Notes under the pieces: model-generated | What the model was told of the DNA's origin: nothing | The model's database searches: none | The model's input: the letters and a program-made list of their open reading frames with translations, nothing else | In this document: positions 4,216 through 45,816 of the stretch, one piece after another | How the letters are laid out: every line of letters starts with the position of its first letter | How positions within the stretch are numbered: the first letter of the stretch is position 1 | Translations under genes and position numbers: made by a program | Virus record (IMG/VR): IMGVR_UViG_3300043444_000400 | Location: 1 to 64,000 of that record | Length of the DNA: 64,000 nucleotides | Direction: 5' to 3' (one strand) | From: a virus

Positions 4216-4994
4216 TGAACATATTCCCCTTTGACCAAGATAAATCCCTGTGTGCTTTATCTTATTGTGACAATTATGTCAATAAGATGAGAACTGAATA
4301 TTGTCAACTCTCATCTACAGCAATCTATGTTTGGGATAAAGAACTCCATACTAAGCTCAGAGAACAAGGATTATGCGCTCCTACCCATGTAAATCACCCT
4401 AGCGCTGTATGGGTGAGAGAAAGTTCATCTAACTTTACCTATTTGCTAGAACTTCTAGAGCTTCTTAATAATAATTGGTTAGAGAAAGGTAAAAACGGTG
4501 ATGCAGCCTCTCTTCATATTAGTTGCTTTCGTGATTTTGTAGAGACTATTGACTACTATGCTCCTCCTACAGAGTTAACTCCACCACCTTTAGCTATGCC
4601 TGATATGGTGAGAGCTAATTATGGAGCGTATAACGAAAGTAAAGGGTATTTTGAGCCTCATTCTTGGGAATCTTGTGTCTCTGCATACCGTGCATACATG
4701 AATCTGAAGGTATTTGCTACCAATCAGAAGACTGCTAAGGGAACAATTAAACCAGTCGATAAAATCGGGATATTCCCTACGTGGAGGCTCAATACAGTTC
4801 CTGAGTGGTATCAACGTACATACTTCCTATCTAATAGTTTGGGTGGGCCTAAGTACACAACTCATATTCCAGATTACAGTCATGATTTGTTTTTCTGGGA
4901 TTGTCAAGATATGAAGCGTCCTTATAAAGTGTTTATTGATGGAAAATATATGAGTGGGTTAGCCTATGAAGAAACATATAAGAACATGTCGTAA
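4215..4994 (+). CDS. Conserved phage protein of the 'HPxxxWxRxSxxN' type (259 aa)
   Basis: The N-terminal half has the order D-x-ALSYCDNYVNKMRTEYCQL (about residues 12-33), then HVNHPSAVWVRESSSNFTYLLELLE (58-82). I remember this arrangement from a phage protein family of unknown function whose members pair an 'NKM..E..QL' helix with 'HP...W.R.S..N..WL'. The C-terminal half has FEPHSWESCVSAYRAYMN and is less familiar. No biochemical role can be assigned. The stop lies inside the first cassette ORF (start 4966), so the cassette array is translationally joined to this gene. Confidence 0.7.
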   Translation: MNIFPFDQDKSLCALSYCDNYVNKMRTEYCQLSSTAIYVWDKELHTKLREQGLCAPTHVNHPSAVWVRESSSNFTYLLELLELLNNNWLEKGKNGDAASLHISCFRDFVETIDYYAPPTELTPPPLAMPDMVRANYGAYNESKGYFEPHSWESCVSAYRAYMNLKVFATNQKTAKGTIKPVDKIGIFPTWRLNTVPEWYQRTYFLSNSLGGPKYTTHIPDYSHDLFFWDCQDMKRPYKVFIDGKYMSGLAYEETYKNMS

Positions 4995-5133
4995 AGGGGG
5001 ACATTGGAGTACCGGAAGTCAAGATAACTGTAAACCCTTATGCTGTGGAGTTTACGCAGACAATAGCCCTAGGAATGGGTTTAGGTTAATGTTAATTGCG
5101 AGGGTATCTAATGCAACCATGGACTTACTATAG
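4966..5133 (+). CDS. FGE/C-type-lectin hairpin cassette 1 (55 aa)
   Basis: The ATG at 4966 overlaps the end of the previous gene by 29 bases. The product has GGHW (residues 11-14), a cysteine-rich middle (CKPLCC) and NGFRLMLI. This is the order found at the C-terminus of FGE-sulfatase domains (GGSW, CRSAxR, GFRL). It has an extra tail after the motif. GAGGGT near its end lies 10 bases before the ATG of cassette 2. Confidence 0.8.
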   Translation: MKKHIRTCRKGGHWSTGSQDNCKPLCCGVYADNSPRNGFRLMLIARVSNATMDLL

Positions 5134-5248
5134 AGGGACCGCTTGGTACTTTCACGCTTTGGATGATTGCGAATTCTGGCCCCCTACCTATGATTATAAC
5201 TACGGAGGTTTTCGTCTCATGTTAGTAAAGGTCACGGAAAATGCTTGA
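5111..5248 (+). CDS. FGE/C-type-lectin hairpin cassette 2 (45 aa)
   Basis: The ATG at 5111 overlaps cassette 1 by 23 bases. The motif order is GTAW, a cysteine in DDC, then GGFRLMLVKV near the C-terminus, with aromatic and Asp residues between. Unlike most junctions, the next cassette starts 32 bases downstream rather than overlapping. Confidence 0.8.
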   Translation: MQPWTYYRGTAWYFHALDDCEFWPPTYDYNYGGFRLMLVKVTENA

Positions 5249-5280
5249 ATCCTTTGAATCCTTGTATAAAGTGAATAGTT

Positions 5281-5433
5281 ATGGGATTAAACCTCTCCGT
5301 ATCACAGGGGGGTTCCTGGCTCATCAATCCGTGGTTCTGTCGGTCTGCGTATCGCAACAGGAGGCGACGCGACAATTCCTACGACAACGGGGGTTTTCGC
5401 TTAATGTTAGTAGAGGCATTCCCTAATGGATAA
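5281..5433 (+). CDS. FGE/C-type-lectin hairpin cassette 3, closest to consensus (50 aa)
   Basis: The ATG at 5281 starts MGLNLSVSQGGSW; the centre reads CRSAYRNRRRRDNSYDN and the end GGFRLMLVEA. This is the textbook FGE-sulfatase C-terminus, also the variable part of retroelement-diversified C-type lectins. A longer ORF in a neighbouring frame (5241-5426) covers the same DNA but lacks the motif. Many variable codons end in C (CTC, ATC, TTC, AAC, TAC, GAC). A run of six G lies just before the GGSW codons. Confidence 0.85.
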   Translation: MGLNLSVSQGGSWLINPWFCRSAYRNRRRRDNSYDNGGFRLMLVEAFPNG

Positions 5434-5509
5434 TTACGACTGTTGTAGAGGTGGTTTTTGGAATAACTCTTCTCAATACAGTATGTCTGCTTACCATATT
5501 GGGGTATGA
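5426..5509 (+). CDS. FGE hairpin cassette 4, first half (27 aa)
   Basis: ATG at 5426, overlapping cassette 3 by 8 bases. The product carries GGFW and SMSAYHIGV and then stops at TGA 5507-5509, before the GFRL part. The missing half continues in another frame from an ATG at 5506 overlapping this stop (ATGA). Either a frameshift broke an ordinary cassette or the two halves are made separately. Confidence 0.6.
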   Translation: MDNYDCCRGGFWNNSSQYSMSAYHIGV

Positions 5510-5721
5510 AATACCTATCTTATAGGAACAAAGGATTTCGCTTAATGCTAGTGGGGGGGGACAAACTAGTGTCTAGATTCTATGACTTTACAGCAGGTTC
5601 TTGGAGCTACTTTGCTGGGGATTGTAAATCTAAGTTCTGTCACTGGAGGCTTTGCGACATTTCCGACAATGATGGTGGATTTCGCTTAATGCTTATCGAA
5701 GTGCAGAATGAAAGACTTTAG
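5506..5721 (+). CDS. FGE hairpin cassette 4 (second half) fused to cassette 5 (71 aa)
   Basis: The ATG at 5506 starts MKYLSYRNKGFRLMLV, the end of cassette 4. Translation then runs through eight G residues (5553-5560) in frame into cassette 5: AGSWSYFAGDCKSKF...DNDGGFRLMLIEV. One base more or less in the G-run would separate them. A GTG at 5569 could start cassette 5 alone. Cassette 5 is close in DNA to cassette 12 (shared TTCTTGGAGCTAC). Confidence 0.75.
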   Translation: MKYLSYRNKGFRLMLVGGDKLVSRFYDFTAGSWSYFAGDCKSKFCHWRLCDISDNDGGFRLMLIEVQNERL

Positions 5722-5872
5722 GTCAAGACCTAACCATACAAACTTTACATATTGTTCTTGGAATGTTGATGCAGAAGACTGGGATGGTAATACCTATAGT
5801 CTTATTCCGTGGCCTACCAAGAAAGATTATTTTGACTTTGGTTTTCGTTTAATGCTAATAGAGGTAAAGTAG
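5708..5872 (+). CDS. FGE/C-type-lectin hairpin cassette 6 (54 aa)
   Basis: ATG at 5708, overlapping the previous stop by 14 bases. The N-terminus is longer than usual; the motif is YCSW instead of GGSW, followed by a divergent middle (no CRSA) and FGFRLMLIEVK. The GAG GTA codons of IEV lie about 10 bases before the next ATG. Confidence 0.75.
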   Translation: MKDFRSRPNHTNFTYCSWNVDAEDWDGNTYSLIPWPTKKDYFDFGFRLMLIEVK

Positions 5873-5874
5873 AT

Positions 5875-6021
5875 ATGCCTAAATTTGTTGATTACGCGGG
5901 TGGCTCTTGTTACAACATCACTAGTTTCACTCGCTCGGCGATCAGGTTCAAGAATCAGAGTGATTACCAGTTCAACCGCTTTGGCTTTCGTCTTACTTTA
6001 GTTGAGAAACCTGATGCGTAA
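5875..6021 (+). CDS. FGE/C-type-lectin hairpin cassette 7 (48 aa)
   Basis: The ATG at 5875 is 2 bases after the previous stop. Motifs: AGGSC, TRSAIRF and FGFRLTLVEK. The middle uses many NNC codons (TAC, AAC, ATC, TTC, CGC), as in cassette 3. Overlaps cassette 8 by 8 bases. Confidence 0.8.
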   Translation: MPKFVDYAGGSCYNITSFTRSAIRFKNQSDYQFNRFGFRLTLVEKPDA

Positions 6022-6163
6022 AATCATTGAATATACTTGGGGTTCCTGCATTAGTGGCCCAGTACTAAATAGGTCTAAGTACCTTTACTATCTTGCTCCT
6101 AGTTATCATGATAAAGCTTTTGGATTCCGTTTGATGTTGATTGAGGCAACTAATTATGGCTAA
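6014..6163 (+). CDS. FGE/C-type-lectin hairpin cassette 8 (49 aa)
   Basis: ATG at 6014. Motifs: TWGSC, NRSKYLYY and FGFRLMLIEA. The Cys normally in CRSA is replaced by Asn while a Cys follows GS. GAGGC lies just before the next ATG (6156). Confidence 0.8.
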   Translation: MRKIIEYTWGSCISGPVLNRSKYLYYLAPSYHDKAFGFRLMLIEATNYG

Positions 6164-6305
6164 GTCTAGTTATATTGACTACATAGGAGGCTCTTGGTTT
6201 ACCTATCGAGTATATTGTAAAGCAATGAATCGAGGTAGGTGGCTTCGTGATGGGTCAGACTATATAGGAGGTTTCCGTCTTATGTTACTTGAGGTTCACA
6301 AATGA
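6156..6305 (+). CDS. FGE/C-type-lectin hairpin cassette 9 (49 aa)
   Basis: ATG at 6156. Motifs: YIGGSW, YCKAMNRGRW and IGGFRLMLLEVHK, close to consensus. The codons for EV provide GAGGT a few bases before the ATG of cassette 10, which overlaps this stop in ATGA. Confidence 0.85.
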   Translation: MAKSSYIDYIGGSWFTYRVYCKAMNRGRWLRDGSDYIGGFRLMLLEVHK

Positions 6306-6436
6306 CTCCATATAGAGGAGGGGGCTTATATAGCTCAGATTGGTTCTGTATCTCTATGAGCATCTCTCAGTGGCCTTCAGAACATAATGGTCGCTACATA
6401 GGTTTTCGTTTGCTGTTAATCGAGGTATACAAATGA
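6302..6436 (+). CDS. FGE/C-type-lectin hairpin cassette 10 (44 aa)
   Basis: ATG at 6302 (ATGA overlap). Motifs: RGGGLYSSDW, FCISMS and IGFRLLLIEVYK. GAGGTATACAA precedes the ATG of the next ORF (6433), giving a well-placed ribosome site. Confidence 0.8.
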   Translation: MTPYRGGGLYSSDWFCISMSISQWPSEHNGRYIGFRLLLIEVYK

Positions 6437-7260
6437 CAGACGGTCAGTTTAACTTCCTTGGTGGGTCATGGGATGGTAATTGCTACGACTACCATGACTC
6501 TTACTTATGCGGCCTATTTGTCAGTGATAATTACATTGGTTTTCGTACTTTGTTAATTCAAGAGGACACAACAATGATTCCCTTTACATTTCTTTCGACT
6601 CTTCCCGGTTCTCGTTTCTATTATCATGAGGGTGCTGAGTATATGGGGCATAAAGCCTCTATGGGGGATACACCAGTAACTCGACGACAATGGAAGTCTA
6701 TTGTGGACCGTTATCCGGAATCGGGTCTGAATCCTGACCCTGCTTGCTTTAAGTCGGTTGCAGAAGAACAGGCGGGTGCTGACCCTTGGGAACTCCCTGT
6801 AGAGTCGGTGAGTTTCCTTGATGTAATCAAATGGCTAGAATTTGCTAATAAAGCTCTAAAAGAGGATTATCCCAATAAAAACTACATGTTCGTAATCCCC
6901 ACATCATATCTGTGGGAACTCTATTGTCGTGCAGGTACTACAACGGCCTTTAACGTAGGGGATACTCTTACGGAGAAGGACGCTAACTTTAACAACCACG
7001 TAGGGCAGACTACGGTGGTTCGGTCATATCTTCCTAATGCCTGGGGTCTGTACGATACGCATGGTAATGTTGGGGAAGCTGTATGTAGTGAAGAAGAACT
7101 ACAGGAGATGTGTCCTGATATCTTCAGTGTATTTCCTAACAAAGTAAAAGAAGAACAAGCTAAACTCGCGCAAGAACAAGCTGAACTGGAAGAGCTTCTG
7201 CGTCAAACTCAACTGACTATGCAAGCTGTCCAAGAAAAGCTGGATAGTCTGAAGATGTAA
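6433..7260 (+). CDS. Cassette 11 fused to an FGE-sulfatase-like core lacking its C-terminal hairpin (275 aa)
   Basis: Residues 1-47 are another cassette (FLGGSW...YIGFRTLLI). An FGE-like core follows, possibly also started internally at the ATG at 6574, which has AAGAGGA upstream. Core features: DTPVTRRQWKSIV, LPVESVSFLDVIKWLEFANK, YMFVIPTSYLWELYCRAGTT and WGLYDTHGNVGEAV. In ordinary FGE domains 'HGNVWEW' leads, some tens of residues later, to GGSW...GFRL. Here the chain instead ends in a coiled coil (about residues 235-275, Glu/Gln/Leu heptads). The hairpin is therefore absent from the core but present 17 times around it. FGE catalytic cysteines are not evident, so a C-type-lectin-like binding role is more likely than enzymatic activity. 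Confidence 0.85.
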   Translation: MTDGQFNFLGGSWDGNCYDYHDSYLCGLFVSDNYIGFRTLLIQEDTTMIPFTFLSTLPGSRFYYHEGAEYMGHKASMGDTPVTRRQWKSIVDRYPESGLNPDPACFKSVAEEQAGADPWELPVESVSFLDVIKWLEFANKALKEDYPNKNYMFVIPTSYLWELYCRAGTTTAFNVGDTLTEKDANFNNHVGQTTVVRSYLPNAWGLYDTHGNVGEAVCSEEELQEMCPDIFSVFPNKVKEEQAKLAQEQAELEELLRQTQLTMQAVQEKLDSLKM

Positions 7261-7266
7261 ATTTGT

Positions 7267-7302
7267 AGGGAATCTGGGCCTCTCTGGGTTCCCTTAATTT
7301 TT
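7267..7302 (+). terminator. Weak terminator-like hairpin after the core gene
   Basis: AGGGAA (7267-7272) can pair with TTCCCT (7289-7294), loop 16 bases, followed by TAATTTTTG. It lies 6 bases after the core stop. The stem is short, so activity is uncertain; it could lower transcription into cassettes 12-17. Confidence 0.4.
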
Positions 7303-7320
7303 GTTAGTAAAGGTAAACCA

Positions 7321-7467
7321 ATGAATTCTTATTGTCACGATAAACGGATGGGTTGTTCTTGGAGCTACGTTGCCGGGGGCTGTTTGTCTGCGAATCGCTA
7401 CAGGTGGCTGCGCGGGGATTCCAGCAGCATCCTAGGTCTTCGTTTAATGTTAGTGGAGTTTAACTAA
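7321..7467 (+). CDS. FGE/C-type-lectin hairpin cassette 12 (48 aa)
   Basis: ATG at 7321. Motifs: GCSWSYVAGGC, LSANRYRW and LGLRLMLVEF. Aligned codon by codon with cassette 3 (5335-5400 against 7381-7440), the frame around TGT, TCT, GCG, CGC and TCC is shared, and most differing codons have an A in one copy and another base in the other. TAC/GAC/AAC in cassette 3 correspond to AGC/AGC/ATC here. Confidence 0.8.
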   Translation: MNSYCHDKRMGCSWSYVAGGCLSANRYRWLRGDSSSILGLRLMLVEFN

Positions 7468-7622
7468 TGACTAAAGAATATATCCCCTATGCTGGGGGTA
7501 CATGGTATCTTATCCCTAGAATCTGTAAGTCTGAGTCTCGTGATTGGTGGCAACGCAGTAATTCCCACGATAACGATAACGGGTTACGGCTAATGTTAAT
7601 TGAGGTACAAAAAGATGAATGA
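7467..7622 (+). CDS. FGE/C-type-lectin hairpin cassette 13 (51 aa)
   Basis: The ATG at 7467 shares a base with the previous stop (TAATG). Motifs: YAGGTW, ICKSESRDWW and NGLRLMLIEVQK. GAGGTACAAAAAG precedes the next ATG. Confidence 0.8.
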   Translation: MTKEYIPYAGGTWYLIPRICKSESRDWWQRSNSHDNDNGLRLMLIEVQKDE

Positions 7623-7758
7623 TTACTATGGTGGTTCCTGGATTTACTTTGCTAAGTTTTGTCGGTCTAATTATTGTTATTTAGCACGACACAACCACTC
7701 CTACAATTATGGTAGTTTCAGATTAATGTTAGTTAGGGTTAACAAAGATGGAAGATAA
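7615..7758 (+). CDS. FGE/C-type-lectin hairpin cassette 14 (47 aa)
   Basis: The ATG at 7615 overlaps cassette 13 by 8 bases. Motifs: YYGGSWIYFAKFCRSNY and YGSFRLMLVRV. The 5' half is close in DNA to cassettes 5 and 12. Confidence 0.8.
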   Translation: MNDYYGGSWIYFAKFCRSNYCYLARHNHSYNYGSFRLMLVRVNKDGR

Positions 7759-7819
7759 GTCTTATAAGTTTGGTCTTAGGTTAGCTTTAGTTGAGGTTAT
7801 TCCTGATGCACTTAGTTAA
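7748..7819 (+). CDS. Vestigial cassette 15, GFRL end only (23 aa)
   Basis: The ATG at 7748 opens a 23-residue frame, MEDKSYKFGLRLALVEV plus a short tail. The GGSW and CRSA parts are missing, as if an internal deletion joined the start to the conserved end. The GAGGT of 'EV' is kept and precedes the ATG of cassette 16. Confidence 0.5.
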   Translation: MEDKSYKFGLRLALVEVIPDALS

Positions 7820-7976
7820 ATACACAGGGGGTTCTTGGGTCTCATTTACTTGGCATTGTCAATCGAACGAATATGGGAAATGTACAAGTTCTAGTAAGAA
7901 TGTATATACGGGATTTCGTTTACTATTGATTGAGGTAAAAAACAATGGTATATATTCATGTAGGTCGTTATCGTAA
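7806..7976 (+). CDS. FGE/C-type-lectin hairpin cassette 16 (56 aa)
   Basis: ATG at 7806 (an upstream GTG at 7791 in frame is less likely). Motifs: YTGGSW, HCQSNEYG and YTGFRLLLIEVKN, followed by an unusually long tail overlapping the start of cassette 17. Confidence 0.8.
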   Translation: MHLVKYTGGSWVSFTWHCQSNEYGKCTSSSKNVYTGFRLLLIEVKNNGIYSCRSLS

Positions 7977-8154
7977 GATTCCTTTCAAGTTATACACAAT
8001 AGCTTTAGGTTCTTGTTGTAAAGGCGGAGGATGGAACAATAGCGCTTGGAACACAAGGTCTAAGTACATAAAAGAACAGGGGAATGGTCATAGTTCAAAT
8101 CGTGGATTCCGCCTTATGTTAATTACGAAAGAAAATGAAAATAACAATCCTTAA
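7945..8154 (+). CDS. FGE/C-type-lectin hairpin cassette 17 (69 aa)
   Basis: The ATG at 7945 lies 8 bases after GAGGT of cassette 16. The N-terminus is longer (about 27 residues) and basic; then GGGWNNSAWNTRSKY and NRGFRLMLI. It ends within the start of the next, unrelated gene (8135). An ACGAAAG word at 8125 lies near its end. Confidence 0.75.
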   Translation: MVYIHVGRYRKIPFKLYTIALGSCCKGGGWNNSAWNTRSKYIKEQGNGHSSNRGFRLMLITKENENNNP

Positions 8155-10290: not shown

Positions 10291-10352
10291 GGTACTAAAA
10301 AGTATTAATGGAGTTAGCAAAGACAGCGGTTCAACTCCGCTCACCTCCACCA
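10291..10352 (+). ncRNA. ssrA: tmRNA acceptor piece (3' part of permuted ssrA)
   Basis: Contains a T-arm (AGCGG, TTCAACT, CCGCT at 10325-10341), a 3' acceptor strand CACCTCC (10342-10348), discriminator A and an encoded CCA (10350-10352). CACCTCC pairs over 7 bp with GGGGGTG at 10450-10456, with a G-U at the third pair, the AlaRS identity signal. Upstream segments TTAGCAAA (10314), AGTATT (10301) and GGTAC (10291) pair in order with TTTGTTAA, AATACT and GTACC of the downstream piece, forming helix P2. Acceptor piece before coding piece is the order in circularly permuted two-piece tmRNA genes. Confidence 0.85.
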
Positions 10353-10445
10353 GGGGCAGTAGCTCAATTGGTAGAGCGAGAAGCTTATACCTTCTGTATG
10401 CACCAGATTAGTGCGCGGTTGTGGGTTCGAGTCCCTCCTGCCCTA
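10353..10445 (+). tRNA. tRNA with long variable arm, anticodon UAU by position, inside the tmRNA intervening segment
   Basis: The acceptor stem GGGGCAG/CTGCCCT starts at the base after the tmRNA acceptor CCA and ends 4 bases before the coding piece. D-stem GCTC/GAGC; anticodon stem AGAAG/CTTCT with loop CTTATAC (anticodon TAT, reading AUA); long variable arm with GCAC/GTGC; T-arm GTGGG, TTCGAGT, CCCTC with one mismatch. A long variable arm normally marks Leu, Ser or Tyr tRNAs, so pairing it with an Ile-type anticodon is odd. No CCA is encoded. RNase P cleavage at its 5' end would create the CCA end of the tmRNA acceptor piece. Confidence 0.7.
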
Positions 10446-10449
10446 CCTT

Positions 10450-10661
10450 GGGGGTGTCCTGGTATCGATTTGTTAATGAAGTGAAATACTGTACCCGGTC
10501 TAGAGTCCAGGACCGACCCTATGTATATACTACATAGGTGAAGAAGGACAAAATCGTGTAAATGCGAATCAAATCAAACCTTTTGCTCGTAAGACCTCTC
10601 TTGCTGTAGCATAATCATTGAACTGGGGTAGCTCATAAGGGTTACCCTAGTTCTTCTTTTT
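10450..10661 (+). ncRNA. ssrA: tmRNA coding piece with tag ANQIKPFARKTSLAVA
   Basis: Starts with the 5' acceptor strand GGGGGTG, then a D-like loop (TGGTATCGA) and the P2 strands at 10469-10495. The tag frame runs GCG 10564 to TAA 10612-10614 and encodes ANQIKPFARKTSLAVA. Cyanobacterial tags have the same ANxIxxFARK...A pattern with a hydrophobic end read by Clp proteases. A hairpin CCTATGTA/TACATAGG lies between P2 and the tag. A terminator follows directly, so the downstream pseudoknots of one-piece tmRNAs are missing. It should rescue stalled ribosomes late in infection. Confidence 0.85.
10621..10661 (+). terminator. Rho-independent terminator of the tmRNA transcript
   Basis: AACTGGGGTA (10621-10630) pairs over ten bases with TACCCTAGTT (10643-10652), one pair being G-U; CTTCTTTTT follows. 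It lies 6 bases after the tag stop codon. Confidence 0.8.
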
Positions 10662-11036: not shown

Positions 11037-11072
11037 ATGCCCTGGTAGCTCAGTGGATAGAGCAATCGCCTT

Positions 11073-11717
11073 TGCAAAAACACCTAAGTAAGCTATAATT
11101 AACTTAGTTTATAAGGTGAACAAATGGAGCCTATTTGTTGGAAGGTTGAGAAGATTGTAAGTAAAGGTGACTATAACTATGCTGTGGTAAAAGGACACCC
11201 AAAAGCTAATAAGCTAGGGTATATTTTAGAACACAGAGTAGTTATGGAGAATCATCTTGGTAGACTTCTTAACTCTGATGAGGTTGTTCATCATATCAAT
11301 CATGATAGAAAGGACAACAGGGTTGAAAACTTGGAAGTTATGACCGCAAAACAGCATCAACTGCTACATGGAAAAGAGATAGGTAGGAAATACTGTCACT
11401 TAAAATGCCCTGAATGTGGTGTTGAATTTTGTAAAGAAATTAGAGATACTTTCTTACAAAAAGGGGGCAGGTTTACTACTTGTTCGGCAAAGTGTAGAGG
11501 AAAACTTTCAAGAAAAATCCAACTCGGAAGAGAAACTCAAATAGTGGAAGCCGCCATATCGGAGAACATCCTTGCTATTTTCAAAAGATACAAGGGCAAC
11601 TCCGAGGTAACTGTCTTACAACAGGAACCGTAGAGACTATACGCGGCTCACCTGAAATGGTGAAGAAATAGTCCAGCCTACAACTCGAAAGAGGTCATAG
11701 TAATATGATGTGGGATG
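11073..11717 (+). other. Group I intron in tRNA-Arg
   Basis: It starts after an exonic U and ends in G, as group I introns do. The 3' core is visible: a P4-P6-like stretch (GGGCAACTCCGAGGTAACTG), P7 strands ACTAT (11636-11640) and ATAGT (11668-11672), and a P8 hairpin CACC/GGTG (11649-11662). The endonuclease ORF ends inside the core. I could not settle the internal guide sequence, so the 5' boundary may shift by a base. Confidence 0.75.
11124..11633 (+). CDS. Intron-encoded HNH homing endonuclease (169 aa)
   Basis: Residues 35-85 hold the HNH signature: EHRVVMENHLGRLLNSDEVV, then HHINHDRKDNR, then NLEVMTAKQHQLLH. A second zinc-type module follows (CPECGVEFC ... CSAKCRGK, about 95-130). It lies wholly within the tRNA-Arg group I intron, and its 3' end overlaps the ribozyme core. 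Such enzymes cut intronless alleles and spread the intron; activity here is inferred from motif and place. Confidence 0.85.
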   Translation: MEPICWKVEKIVSKGDYNYAVVKGHPKANKLGYILEHRVVMENHLGRLLNSDEVVHHINHDRKDNRVENLEVMTAKQHQLLHGKEIGRKYCHLKCPECGVEFCKEIRDTFLQKGGRFTTCSAKCRGKLSRKIQLGRETQIVEAAISENILAIFKRYKGNSEVTVLQQEP

Positions 11718-11778
11718 CTAAGCGATCGGTCGCAGGTTCGAGTCCTGCCCAGGGCGCTAACTTTAGAGGTTAATAGTG

Positions 11779-42198: not shown

Positions 42199-45100
42199 AT
42201 GACTTTTAATCTTTCTAATCCATTAACTCGTTATCCTGTAAATGCTCGTACTTATCGACGAATTGAGGACCGATGGGAGTTTCTAGAGCAAGACCAAAAG
42301 AAAAGACAACTTGATTTCACTCTTCGTATGGGAGAGTATACACAGGAACAAGAAGAACTTGTATCTGATTTCTTTAATAAGGAAATTTCTAATACTAGTG
42401 GACGTGTTTGGTGGGCAGCCGGTAGTAATAAAGAGAATGACCCGTTTGGTTATTATGCTTTCTATAACTGCTCAGGAACTATGTTTGTTAGTTTCTATGA
42501 TTTTATTCGGTCTTTTAACAATCTATTTCTGGGTTGTGGACAAGGTGAGGTTATTCGAGAAGTTAATCTTAAGAAGCTTTCTAAAGTAGTAAATGTATTT
42601 AATCTTGAATTTACAGGTTATTTTGGTGAATACGGATTTGATAACCCTTCCTACACTGAACACACTAAGTTATATCTAAGTGAAGACCAATCCTTAATCA
42701 CTATTGAAGTTGGTGATAGTAGAGAAGGTTGGGCAAGTGCAACTAATGCATTGTTTGAGCTTTACACAAATGGAGCATACTTTTTAGAGGATAAAGATAA
42801 ACTTGGTATCCCTTTACTTACGAATGTAACGAAAGAAAAATTACAAGAGGCTCTTCTTAATGGGTACACCATCCATGTATGTCTAAGTTCTATTCGTCCT
42901 TACGGTACTCCCTGTAAAGGATTTGGTGGAATTGCTAATCCTGTATATACGGAAGAGTTCTTTACACGACTAACTAATATTCTTAACCGTGTAGCACTTA
43001 CTGAATCCCAACAAATCAATACTTTAGATTGTGCTCTTATTAATAATGAGTTTGCAGCATGGGCTGTAGCGGGAGGACAGCGACGAAGTGCAAAGATTGA
43101 ACAGTTTGACTTTGATGACCCTACGGCTGATGCCAAGATGAATCTGTGGACTCAGCTTGATGATGGGACTTGGGTAGCTGATGAAGAGAAGAAATCACTC
43201 AAGTTCTCTAACTTTACTAAGTTGTATTTTCATAAACCTACACTAGAAGAAGTAGAGAATGCAGTTCGTACACAATTTATTTGTGGTGAAGGAGCTATTC
43301 AGTACGTACCCGTAGCTTTAGCACGAGCAAATGTTGATTTGTTTGAAAATGAAGATGCAATTGTTAAAGTTAACGAAGCTGTAGATAATCAAATTAGTTT
43401 TGAAGAACTATTTAGTACAGCATATAAGGATAAGTTTGGTAAGGAAATTGATGAACGAGAGTTAACCCATAGAGTCAGTAGATATCAGCTTAACCCTTGT
43501 TTTGCTCCCGGTACTATTGTAATGACTCGTGAGGGCTACTTCCCTATTGAAACTCTCGTAGGTAAGGAAGTTGAAGTTTATGATGGTACAGAATGGCGTA
43601 AAGTAGATAACTTCCGTGTTACAGCTACCGACCAAGATGTTTATGATGTAGAACTTCATGATGGGTCTATTATCACAGCAACCGCATACCATAAGTTTAT
43701 TCTTGTTGATGGTACTGAAAAACAACTTAAAGACTTGGAAGTTGGTGATGAGTTAATGACCACAGATATTCCTCCTGTAGAAGGTACTATTAAAGCTAAA
43801 GGAGCTTACCTTAAAGGTTTCCTTATTGGTGATGGTACTAGTTCAAATGGAAAAGGTGCCATGTGTAAAATCTATGCACCAAAGATGGTCTGTCTTGACC
43901 GGCTATTTGCCTCCCAACGTGAAATGAATGGCCGTACAGGTAGTTATGAAGTTGGACTTACACCTTCAGATCGTCTGAAAAGCCTAACTGCTGTAGAAGA
44001 AGACCTTAATCCTTGGTGTTACAAGTATAAGCATGAATTCCCTTACGAAGTTCTTAACTGGGACAACGAAAGTAAAGCTAATTTTATTGCAGGTTTGTTT
44101 GATGCTGATGGAACTGCTCAAGATAGCAATAGTGGTTTCCGTTATCAACTTACAAGTATCTCTCGTCCATTCTTAGAGGGTCTAGTCTTACTCCTCCGTA
44201 CTCTAGGAATTAATTCTAAGATTGGGCCTGCTCGTAAAGGAGGTGTTAAGGATTTTGGTCCTGAAAGAGGAGGTTTGTGTAACTGTAAAGATACTTATCG
44301 GATTAGTCTAAGTCAAAAAGATTCCATTAAGCTTGGTCAATTGTGTACTTTTGAACGGCTTAAGGACTTAGGAGACAAAGCTACTCTTAATAGCTTTAAG
44401 AATAAGACAAACCAAGTTAAACAGATTTCTTTTAACAGTAATGCTCCTGAAGTCTATTGTTGTACTGTAGAAGGGACCAACAGATTCAGTATTCATGCGG
44501 GTTTGTTAGTGGGCAACTGTGGTGAAGTAGAAGGTAGTGACTTCATGTGCAACTTATCTTCTACCCACTTACGCCCTCTTATTAGAGAATTTATTGTTAA
44601 CAAACTTAATGCTAGTGACTTAGCACCTCTAATGTATAAGGCTTTCTATGCTTCTGCTTTGATTATGACCCCATTGCTTAAGCATAAATTTCCTGATGAG
44701 AAATTTGCCTACTCACGAGAGATTGACCCTATTGTCCTTGCAAGCTTCACAGAGGGCTTTGAATTCTTCTCATGGCTATTCGGACCTAAGTGGTGTGAAT
44801 GGTGGCTTGCTGCGCCTTCTGGATACGAATCAGACGATATTACATGTCCTCCAGAATTGTATGGAAGACCTGATGAGTGGGTTCAAGAACATTATGATTT
44901 TAGTGAGGAAGAACATGAGCGAATTTCTTTCGTCACCTCTGTAGTTAAGACTATTCTGTCTAGTAAACCAGAAGTTAAAGAGCTACTTAAAAATGATGTA
45001 AGCTTTAATATTTTTGATACAATTGACTCCTTCTTATCTAATAAGAGTTGGGGTCTAGATTTGGGTTGGATGTTCACTACTTATGAACGTATTATCCTTA

Positions 45101-45816
45101 CCTATTGGAAATTAGCTGTACGAGATGGTGTATTTGATTATTGTGATGAACAAGGTCTAAAGCGCCCTAATCGTTATAGTGGGTTAAAGCCTGAAGGTTC
45201 TCAAACTCTTCTTACTGGATACACTAATAGCTGGGAACCCCCTAAAGCTGCTTACTATATCCGTCGTATTACGATGGACCCTGCAACGGCTGTAGCTAAA
45301 GCATGTTATGACTTTGGTTATGAAGTAGTACCTGGACAAACTGATACCGATGAGAATGGTGTTCTTCTTAACGACCCATTTGACCCTCGTGTTAAGACTT
45401 GGCTCGTAGAAATTCCAATTCATGTAGACACAGTTCCTGATTGGTTTGATGGTAGTGAAGTTAGTGCATTAGCTCAATATAAGTTCTGGATGCAATGTCA
45501 GACCTACTATACGACTCATAATACGTCGAGTACGATTTTGCTTAAGGAGAATGAGGTTGAAACTCTAGCGGCTCAAATCTACGCTGATATTCATAACAAC
45601 AAACCCTATATTTCTACAGCCCTACTTTCTCGTATGGGAGATACATTCCCTCGTCTACCCTATGAGAAGTGTACGAAAGAAGAATATGAGCGGCGTATGA
45701 ATAAAATTGATACATCGATTGATTTCTACAAGTTAGTTGCTAAATATGATTCAGCTAAGGACTCCTTTAGTGGCCCTAGTGGATGTGATAGTGACTTCTG
45801 TGAAATTAAGTTTTAA
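42199..45816 (+). CDS. nrdJ: Class II ribonucleotide reductase with intein (1205 aa)
   Basis: The N-part has GRVWWAAGSNKENDPF and YNCSGT, the core NPCGEVEGSDFMCNL and RPNRYSGLKPEGSQTLL; this is the monomeric, B12-dependent RTPR type. The C-terminus carries the redox Cys pair CDSDFCE. An intein interrupts 'NP|C': it begins CFAPGTIVMTREGYFPIETL (Cys434) and ends HAGLLVGN (Asn773) before Cys774, which is also the conserved catalytic Cys. Removing it leaves 865 residues. The enzyme supplies deoxynucleotides together with ThyX and dUTPase. Confidence 0.9.
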   Translation: MTFNLSNPLTRYPVNARTYRRIEDRWEFLEQDQKKRQLDFTLRMGEYTQEQEELVSDFFNKEISNTSGRVWWAAGSNKENDPFGYYAFYNCSGTMFVSFYDFIRSFNNLFLGCGQGEVIREVNLKKLSKVVNVFNLEFTGYFGEYGFDNPSYTEHTKLYLSEDQSLITIEVGDSREGWASATNALFELYTNGAYFLEDKDKLGIPLLTNVTKEKLQEALLNGYTIHVCLSSIRPYGTPCKGFGGIANPVYTEEFFTRLTNILNRVALTESQQINTLDCALINNEFAAWAVAGGQRRSAKIEQFDFDDPTADAKMNLWTQLDDGTWVADEEKKSLKFSNFTKLYFHKPTLEEVENAVRTQFICGEGAIQYVPVALARANVDLFENEDAIVKVNEAVDNQISFEELFSTAYKDKFGKEIDERELTHRVSRYQLNPCFAPGTIVMTREGYFPIETLVGKEVEVYDGTEWRKVDNFRVTATDQDVYDVELHDGSIITATAYHKFILVDGTEKQLKDLEVGDELMTTDIPPVEGTIKAKGAYLKGFLIGDGTSSNGKGAMCKIYAPKMVCLDRLFASQREMNGRTGSYEVGLTPSDRLKSLTAVEEDLNPWCYKYKHEFPYEVLNWDNESKANFIAGLFDADGTAQDSNSGFRYQLTSISRPFLEGLVLLLRTLGINSKIGPARKGGVKDFGPERGGLCNCKDTYRISLSQKDSIKLGQLCTFERLKDLGDKATLNSFKNKTNQVKQISFNSNAPEVYCCTVEGTNRFSIHAGLLVGNCGEVEGSDFMCNLSSTHLRPLIREFIVNKLNASDLAPLMYKAFYASALIMTPLLKHKFPDEKFAYSREIDPIVLASFTEGFEFFSWLFGPKWCEWWLAAPSGYESDDITCPPELYGRPDEWVQEHYDFSEEEHERISFVTSVVKTILSSKPEVKELLKNDVSFNIFDTIDSFLSNKSWGLDLGWMFTTYERIILTYWKLAVRDGVFDYCDEQGLKRPNRYSGLKPEGSQTLLTGYTNSWEPPKAAYYIRRITMDPATAVAKACYDFGYEVVPGQTDTDENGVLLNDPFDPRVKTWLVEIPIHVDTVPDWFDGSEVSALAQYKFWMQCQTYYTTHNTSSTILLKENEVETLAAQIYADIHNNKPYISTALLSRMGDTFPRLPYEKCTKEEYERRMNKIDTSIDFYKLVAKYDSAKDSFSGPSGCDSDFCEIKF
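43498..44517 (+). mobile_element. Intein with LAGLIDADG homing endonuclease (340 aa) inside nrdJ
   Basis: N-terminal splice block CFAPGTIVMTREGYFPIETL, block B around VELHDGSIITATAYHKFI, two dodecapeptide motifs (YLKGFLIGDGTS and FIAGLFDADGTA) and the C-terminal HAGLLVGN with final Asn, followed by Cys. All splicing residues appear intact, so it should splice. Insertion at the catalytic Cys of a reductase is a classic intein site. Confidence 0.9.

What the first reader, a model, noticed from the sequence alone, without database searches (positions are those of the whole stretch)
4966..8154. Tandem array of 17 mini-ORFs each encoding only the FGE/C-type-lectin C-terminal hairpin
Between 4966 and 8154 the DNA is a head-to-tail series of 44-71-codon ORFs, most showing GGSW (or a variant), a central CRSAxR-like stretch and GFRLMLIEV, with the residues between almost entirely different. 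In known FGE-sulfatase and DGR variable proteins this hairpin is the C-terminal part of one large domain. Here it appears as free-standing genes, with their own starts and stops, around one core gene that lacks it. The idea: the phage makes many interchangeable peptides that complete a split receptor-binding fold, or keeps a bank for recombination into another gene. I know of no described system like this.
Basis: partly seen in the sequence, partly recalled or inferred. Interest (0 to 1): 0.96.

Follow-up and report, generated by a model that had tools for sequence, protein, structure and literature searches.

The report
Phage receptor fold with spare hairpins
This phage encodes one scaffold protein of the FGE/C-type-lectin kind with its variable binding hairpin cut off, and beside it about 17 tiny genes that each encode a different version of that hairpin; the same split-and-multiplied design recurs in many other phages, which makes it look like a new way for a virus to display many binding surfaces on one scaffold.

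Summary
Between 4966 and 8154 lie 17 head-to-tail hairpins (15 intact, one frameshifted, one truncated) around a truncated FGE-fold gene (6574-7260). Core and hairpins match complementary parts of the same families. The mini-ORFs look translated: starts overlap stops, Shine-Dalgarno sites sit in the preceding tail, and the GFRLMLIEV codons vary mostly synonymously. The design recurs in unrelated IMG/VR phages: the core stops near position 211 of PF03781, and several to 16 hairpins lie nearby as separate mini-ORFs, as fusions to the core's N terminus, or in the -1 frame behind a CTG_GGA_AAG or CTG_GGG_GAG site. Hairpins are hypervariable while cores are nearly constant; one phage pair differs only at codon positions 1 and 2 (28:0), the signature of a diversity-generating retroelement (DGR). 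No reverse transcriptase was found in any viral record searched. Best reading: one scaffold with many DGR-derived alternative hairpins, probably acting inside the host cell. Docking in this phage is inferred; AlphaFold did not confirm it. The recombination-bank reading is disfavoured, and the tail-receptor role lacks support.

The parts
4966..5133 (+). hairpin mini-ORF 1 (GGHW..NCKP..GFRLMLIARV)
   Evidence: E 3e-15, profile includes it
5111..5248 (+). hairpin mini-ORF 2
   Evidence: start overlaps the previous ORF by 23 nt
5281..5433 (+). hairpin mini-ORF 3 (c03), DGR-like: QGGSWLINPWFCRSAYRNRRRRDNSYDNGGFRLMLVE
   Evidence: phrog_18508 C-terminus E=2e-6; DNA resembles cyanobacterial DGR template repeats
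5426..5568 (+). hairpin 4, broken by a frameshift: stop at about 5507, restart ATGA at 5506, then a G8 run
5569..5721 (+). hairpin mini-ORF 5 (GTG start; in frame with the 3' half of hairpin 4)
5708..5872 (+). hairpin mini-ORF 6 (degenerate middle)
5875..6021 (+). hairpin mini-ORF 7
6014..6163 (+). hairpin mini-ORF 8
6156..6305 (+). hairpin mini-ORF 9
6302..6436 (+). hairpin mini-ORF 10 (ATGA junctions)
6433..6573 (+). hairpin 11, fused in frame to the N terminus of the core (order permuted relative to normal FGE)
   Evidence: ORF 6433-7260; the same arrangement in L165, L168, L160, L152, L158
6574..7260 (+). FGE-fold core that stops after GLYDTHGNVGEAV, then a coiled-coil-like tail; lacks the C-terminal hairpin; own ATG with GAGG 8 nt upstream
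   Evidence: PF03781 38-191 of 255, E=1e-12; phrog_18508 54-196 of 266, E=2e-20
7267..7294 (+). terminator-like stem-loop with T tail between core and downstream hairpins
7321..7467 (+). hairpin mini-ORF 12 (c13), DGR-like; its upstream TTGTTAGTAAAGGT resembles a cassette tail
   Evidence: template A/non-A mismatch 17/27 vs 11/45, p=0.002
7467..7622 (+). hairpin mini-ORF 13
7615..7758 (+). hairpin mini-ORF 14
7748..7819 (+). hairpin 15, truncated to the GLRLALVEV tail (23 aa)
7806..7976 (+). hairpin mini-ORF 16
7945..8154 (+). hairpin mini-ORF 17

Best explanation
The locus is a split, hairpin-multiplied FGE-fold (C-type-lectin-like) binding-protein system. One gene makes the scaffold up to the GNVWEW motif. 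An overlapping operon makes about 15 different 24-residue variable hairpins, each with its GFR strand, by coupled re-initiation of translation (shown as sequence anatomy). A scaffold is completed by one hairpin at a time, so one core yields many binding surfaces. In this phage one hairpin is linked covalently at the N terminus (permuted order) and the others are inferred to add in trans. In relatives the hairpins are linked by N-terminal fusion or, apparently, by -1 frameshifting. The hairpins are descended from DGR variable repeats: their variety arose by adenine mutagenesis and cassette swapping (shown in relatives, traceable in two cassettes here). The reverse transcriptase is not in any phage record found, so diversification is inferred to come from a host DGR acting in trans or from capture of host repeats. 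The likely role is binding of host proteins inside the cell, plausibly host FGE-type antigen sensors, rather than adsorption.
For: Complementary profile matches of core and hairpins. Protein-level selection on GFRLMLIEV: codon-position differences 0.35/0.14/0.51 against 0.69/0.61/0.63 in the variable core. Shine-Dalgarno sites and overlapping starts. Recurrence in phages that share only the module: L030 (12 hairpins, junctions nearly all -1/-4), L165 (about 16), L168/L155, L169/L151, L160, L152/L158, L271/L274, L277. Cores in those records stop near 191-211 of PF03781, and separate hairpins match about 200-255. DGR signature: L152 vs L158 hairpins differ at 28 sites within the 24-codon cores (31 with flanks), none at codon position 3, while the compared core segments differ at 4 of 201 nt; over 6 phage pairs the hairpins carry 187 differences, the core segments 25. 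c13 and c03 mismatch a cyanobacterial template repeat preferentially at A (p=0.002, 0.03). No RVT_1 match in G000, 37 other IMG/VR records or 3 isolate phages. In 15 loci the first hairpin after the core is in the -1 frame (1 in +1); a CTGGGRRAG site lies 14-29 nt before it in all 13 examined, and that motif is nearly absent elsewhere in these loci. Neighbours are DNA-metabolism and packaging genes. Host FGE/CLec DGR targets are proposed antigen sensors of anti-phage systems (PMC10907252, PMC7159879).
Against: AlphaFold of the hairpin-core fusion of this phage gave pLDDT 71.5, pTM 0.67, with the hairpin loop poorly predicted and no FGE match in the PDB, so docking is unproven. Most cassettes here are too diverged to show a DGR signature. 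No template repeat or reverse transcriptase is in the 71-kb record, but every record is a possible fragment. 45 of 78 viral FGE loci found with a core query are ordinary, with a single C-terminal hairpin. The frameshift loci are related to each other, so they are not 13 independent events.
Confidence: 0.6

Rival explanations
1. Silent cassette bank: the hairpins are stored for gene conversion into a full-length FGE gene elsewhere.
For: Hairpins are swapped between near-identical phages (L228 vs L229: 35 of 72 nt differ with 1 core difference; L271 vs L274). Young GC-rich cassettes sit among old AT-rich ones in L030 (GC 0.23 to 0.54).
Against: No full-length FGE in G000 or G001. Conserved ends vary at synonymous positions, so they are not DNA-level recombination sites; no flanking inverted repeats. 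Each cassette has its own start and usually a Shine-Dalgarno site.
Confidence: 0.12
2. Stand-alone decoy or inhibitor peptides: each hairpin acts alone on host FGE/CLec sensors or other host proteins, and the core is a vestige or a separate gene.
For: Free mini-ORFs greatly outnumber the core; G002 has fused hairpins and no core in its 26.8-kb fragment; hosts carry DGR-diversified FGE sensors (PMC10907252).
Against: The truncated core sits next to or inside the array in most other arrays and keeps its profile; in several related phages hairpins are fused covalently to the core, and in others apparently joined by frameshift.
Confidence: 0.2
3. Receptor-binding (tail) variability like BPP-1 Mtd: the hairpins change adsorption specificity.
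For: The C-type-lectin fold and DGR-type variation are typical of phage tail proteins (PMC10743442, listed).
Against: Neighbours in relatives are helicase/primase, dCTP deaminase, thymidylate kinase, RNR and terminase genes. In G000 the array sits among small unknown genes near 5-8 kb, while the portal and a long fibre-like ORF are on the opposite strand beyond 61 kb. No tail-attachment domain was seen.
Confidence: 0.1
4. Neutral tandem duplication in decay.
For: One hairpin is frameshifted and one truncated; similarity between cassettes is low.
Against: 15 of 17 frames are open with starts; GGSW and GFRLMLIEV are kept at protein level; the same design is found in several unrelated phages.
Confidence: 0.05

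Closest known systems
DGR variable proteins of the FGE/C-type-lectin type (Treponema TvpA, Bordetella phage Mtd, cyanobacterial FGE targets)
   Same: Same fold family; hypervariable segment of 24 codons between GGSW and GFR, same length as cyanobacterial template repeats; adenine-type variation.
   Different: In known cases the variable repeat is the C-terminal end of one chain with TR and RT in the same genome; here it is cut off, multiplied and expressed as separate mini-genes, with no RT or TR in the record.
Full-length FGE proteins of Microcystis phages (LMM01 gp062, MaMV; phrog_18508 'kinase')
   Same: Core and hairpin are homologous to the two parts of these proteins; their hairpins also differ between strains.
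   Different: Single chain with one C-terminal hairpin.
Host FGE/CLec antigen-sensor domains in STAND and VMAP ternary conflict systems (PMC10907252, PMC7159879)
   Same: Same domain and same kind of diversification; common in cyanobacteria.
   Different: Fused to effector or vWA domains in hosts; the phage versions are bare, split and multiplied.
Alternative C-termini of phage genes (shufflons, Mu/P1 invertible tail fibres; from general knowledge)
   Same: One constant part with interchangeable variable ends.
   Different: No inverted repeats around cassettes; choice appears to be at translation or assembly level, not DNA inversion.
Lambda gpG/gpGT -1 frameshift (GGGAAAG slippery site; from general knowledge)
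   Same: The related phages have G_GGA_AAG in the right frame just before the out-of-frame hairpin.
   Different: There it tunes a tail chaperone; here it would select among variable binding hairpins. Not present in this window.

Membership tests
FGE-sulfatase (PF03781) | Match of the domain core over the curated cut-off | tested here: met
   48.6 bits against 23.3, positions 38-191
FGE-sulfatase (PF03781) | C-terminal GGSW...GFR hairpin in the same chain | tested here: not met
   Missing at the C terminus of the core; present as separate mini-ORFs and one N-terminal fusion
FGE-sulfatase (PF03781) | Catalytic cysteine pair of formylglycine-generating enzyme in the GGS..C....C segment | tested here: not met
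   Hairpins have at most the single CRSA cysteine at the common position; motif from general knowledge
FGE-sulfatase (PF03781) | FGE three-dimensional fold | tested here: inconclusive
   Model pTM 0.67; no PDB match at E<=0.001
Diversity-generating retroelement | Reverse transcriptase | tested here: not met
   No RVT_1 in the 71-kb record or in 37 other IMG/VR records; records may be fragments
Diversity-generating retroelement | Template repeat | tested here: not met
   No second copy outside the array in the held record
Diversity-generating retroelement | Variable repeats differing from the template at adenines | tested here: inconclusive
   Met for c13 and c03 against a related cyanobacterial TR, saturated in most others; clearly met in the relatives L152/L158
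Diversity-generating retroelement | IMH element at the 3' end of the variable repeat | tested here: not met
   The 3' flank is LMLIEV coding/SD sequence, unlike the TR/VR flanks of cyanobacteria
Invertible or site-specific cassette systems (shufflon, integron) | Recombination sites flanking cassettes | tested here: not met
   Only coding-level direct repeats, mostly at 60-79% identity; no inverted repeats bordering cassettes
-1 programmed frameshifting | Slippery heptamer in frame before an overlapping -1 ORF | tested here: inconclusive
   8 of 13 related loci have G_GGA_AAG, 5 have the near-variant CTG_GGG_GAG; not seen in this window; no expression data

The most novel reading that the evidence does not exclude
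Phages have evolved a constant-scaffold, interchangeable-hairpin recognition system: one FGE core is completed by any of many DGR-diversified hairpins, supplied in trans as mini-genes, by permuted fusion, or chosen during translation by -1 frameshifting. The hairpins are diversified by the host's own DGR machinery and turned against host FGE-type immune sensors.
Probability: 0.3. Interest if true: 0.96.

Novelty: categorically new. Interest (0 to 1): 0.9.

Why it matters
Known ways to vary a binding protein mutate one gene or invert one end of it. Here the hypervariable hairpin of a known receptor fold has become a family of separate mini-genes around one scaffold, repeatedly and in unrelated phages. 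Relatives suggest that the hairpin can be chosen during translation. If the pieces assemble, it is a compact natural display library of immediate interest for protein engineering. Because the same hypervariable domain serves as a proposed antigen sensor in cyanobacteria and other multicellular bacteria, it also makes a direct test possible of whether phages copy or block that sensor system. The literature searches found no description of split FGE or hairpin arrays; they cover open-access papers only.

Tried and rejected
Scans for close relatives of the core, the polymerase and the strict GFRLMLIE motif in IMG/VR gave nothing; the cassette alignment alone had no block long enough. tblastn of one cassette (typed with one residue changed) against isolate phages gave nothing. 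A genome-contig scan with the triple GFR pattern gave 111 stretches; the 80 listed were checked with the cassette profile and none had an array. Pfam is too weak on single 50-residue mini-ORFs, so profile and complementary-position evidence was used. Two AlphaFold runs on the hairpin-core fusion (13 and 57 sequences) improved from pLDDT 65 to 71.5 but gave no FGE fold match. The L169/L151 mismatch cluster lies at a contig end and is not used as evidence. L158 hairpin DNA gave only partial hits in cyanobacteria, so its template was not identified. Considered and rejected: shufflon/integron (no sites) and a DGR locus proper (no RT or TR).
Full report
THE OBSERVATION. The window is bases 1-64,000 of a 71,060-bp IMG/VR virus record. 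On the + strand, 4966-8154 holds 17 head-to-tail hairpins of the form GGSW / C.S. / GFRLMLIEV. Fifteen are intact mini-ORFs of about 44-69 codons, one is broken by a frameshift (5426-5568) and one is a 23-residue tail (7748-7819). None occurs elsewhere in the record. Between hairpins 11 and 12 lies a core gene (6574-7260).

CORE AND HAIRPINS ARE TWO PARTS OF ONE DOMAIN. The core matches PF03781 at positions 38-191 and phrog_18508 at 54-196; mini-ORF 5281-5430 matches the same phrog at 222-263. A profile of the 15 cassettes, run over three Microcystis phages, finds only the C-terminal ends of complete FGE proteins (E 2e-7 to 4e-4). In the PDB all seven weak hits are at the C-terminal end of their chains, including residues 258-290 of the DGR protein TvpA, while the FGE-core profile of phage relatives matches TvpA up to residue 240. 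The core of this window stops just after the GNVGE motif, where the hairpin would begin.

THE MINI-ORFS LOOK TRANSLATED. Most starts overlap the previous stop by 1-32 nt, and 12 of 20 starts have at least four consecutive Shine-Dalgarno bases against 19% of other ATGs. The SD (usually GAGG) is the ...IEV... part of the preceding tail. Across cassettes GFRLMLIEV differs mainly at codon position 3 (0.35/0.14/0.51) whereas the variable core is saturated (0.69/0.61/0.63). This is protein-level selection and argues that the conserved ends are not DNA recombination sites. A terminator-like stem-loop separates the core from the downstream six hairpins.

THE DESIGN RECURS. Spaced GFR patterns in IMG/VR found further arrays. 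L030 (99-kb record) has a truncated core followed by 12 mini-ORFs, junctions nearly all -1 or -4 nt. L165 has about 16 hairpins and a core. L168/L155, L169/L151, L160, L157, L154 and L027 have more. Where a core was found it covers roughly PF03781 5-211 and stops, and separate hairpins match about 200-255. In G000, L165, L168 and L160 the last upstream hairpin is fused in frame to the N terminus of the core. In L152 and L158 four and three hairpins precede the core in one ORF, and in L271 and L274 two do. Of 78 FGE loci from a core query, 45 are ordinary single-chain proteins.

A THIRD ARRANGEMENT: FRAMESHIFT. In 15 loci the first hairpin after the core is in the -1 frame (one in +1, p=0.0005), and the unshifted core frame usually runs on to a second, in-frame hairpin. 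All 13 examined have CTG_GGA_AAG or CTG_GGG_GAG in the core frame 14-29 nt before the hairpin. L258 has five such sites, each before its own out-of-frame hairpin, with a sixth hairpin in frame. CTGGGAAAG followed closely by a hairpin was found in viral contigs only in these contigs. These loci are 66-96% identical around the core, so they are not independent. Frameshifting itself is inferred.

WHERE THE VARIETY COMES FROM. Between L152 and L158 the two comparable hairpins differ at 28 sites within the 24-codon cores (31 with flanks), all at codon positions 1 and 2, while a 201-nt core segment differs at 4. That is what AAC-to-NNC adenine mutagenesis by a DGR gives. Other pairs show DGR-like change (L264/L270) or whole-hairpin replacement (L228/L229). 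In this window, DNA of c03 finds DGR template/variable repeat loci in cyanobacteria, several with an RT-like ORF nearby. Template core and cassette are both 24 codons long. Against one template, c13 mismatches at 17 of 27 adenines and 11 of 45 other bases (p=0.002), c03 at 12 of 27 and 9 of 45 (p=0.03); most other cassettes are saturated. So the array mixes recent and old hairpins of DGR origin. No RT was found in G000, 37 other IMG/VR records or three isolate phages, and no template in G000. Diversification by a host DGR in trans, or capture of host repeats, is inferred.

LIKELY ROLE. Identifiable neighbours in relatives are helicase/primase, dCTP deaminase, thymidylate kinase, RNR and terminase genes; in G000 the array lies among small unknown genes, and the portal and a long fibre-like ORF lie at the other end. 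This favours an intracellular role over adsorption. Host FGE/CLec domains diversified by DGRs are proposed antigen sensors in anti-phage conflict systems, notably in cyanobacteria (PMC10907252, PMC7159879). Binding or mimicking such sensors is the most economical guess; it is not shown. The host of G000 is probably a cyanobacterium.

WHAT IS SHOWN AND WHAT IS NOT. Shown by sequence: the array, the homology, coding signals, recurrence, N-terminal fusions, -1 frame geometry with slippery-like sites in relatives, and hypervariation with a DGR signature in relatives. Inferred: that a hairpin docks on the core in this phage, that frameshifting occurs, that host DGRs act in trans, and the biological target. 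AlphaFold of the native hairpin-core fusion (pLDDT 71.5, pTM 0.67) did not give an FGE match, so docking stays open.

NOVELTY. The module (FGE/CLec fold, DGR-type variable hairpin) is known. What has no described counterpart that I could find is the system built from it: a scaffold separated from its hypervariable hairpin, with many hairpins kept and expressed side by side, in three different linkages across phages. I therefore rate it categorically new as a system while noting that its parts are familiar and that my literature search covers open-access papers only.

Noticed in passing
window 10291-10614 (tRNA-Ile 10353-10447): Permuted tmRNA (Rfam RF04321, E=6e-16) with a tRNA-Ile gene nested inside it, apparently as its intervening segment.
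   Followed up: partly
window 11041-11757: What looks like a tRNA gene split by an insert carrying an HNH-like endonuclease ORF (11124-11633), possibly an intron; ARAGORN and Rfam did not report it.
   Followed up: no
window 42199-45816: Ribonucleotide reductase-like ORF of 1205 aa that appears to contain an intein (CFAPGTIVMTREG...).
   Followed up: no
L258 4486-5570 (IMGVR_UViG_3300020197_000087): Core frame open through five out-of-frame hairpins, each preceded by CTG_GGA_AAG, to a sixth in-frame hairpin: candidate translational selector of variable hairpins.
   Followed up: partly
L235 1-8564 (IMGVR_UViG_3300040801_004793): Up to nine consecutive FGE-like genes in tandem, most with their own variable hairpin.
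   Followed up: no
L228 / L229 near 4595: Two phages whose compared core segments differ at one base but whose hairpins differ at 35 of 72 nt: whole-hairpin replacement rather than point mutation.
   Followed up: no
L150:3795-4334 (G002): Hairpin [34 protein letters not shown] that reads like a nearly unmutated DGR template, in a phage fragment without RT or FGE core.
   Followed up: no
window 5549-5558: Run of eight G at the end of the broken hairpin, fusing it in frame to the next hairpin; could be decay, slippage or a sequencing error.
   Followed up: no
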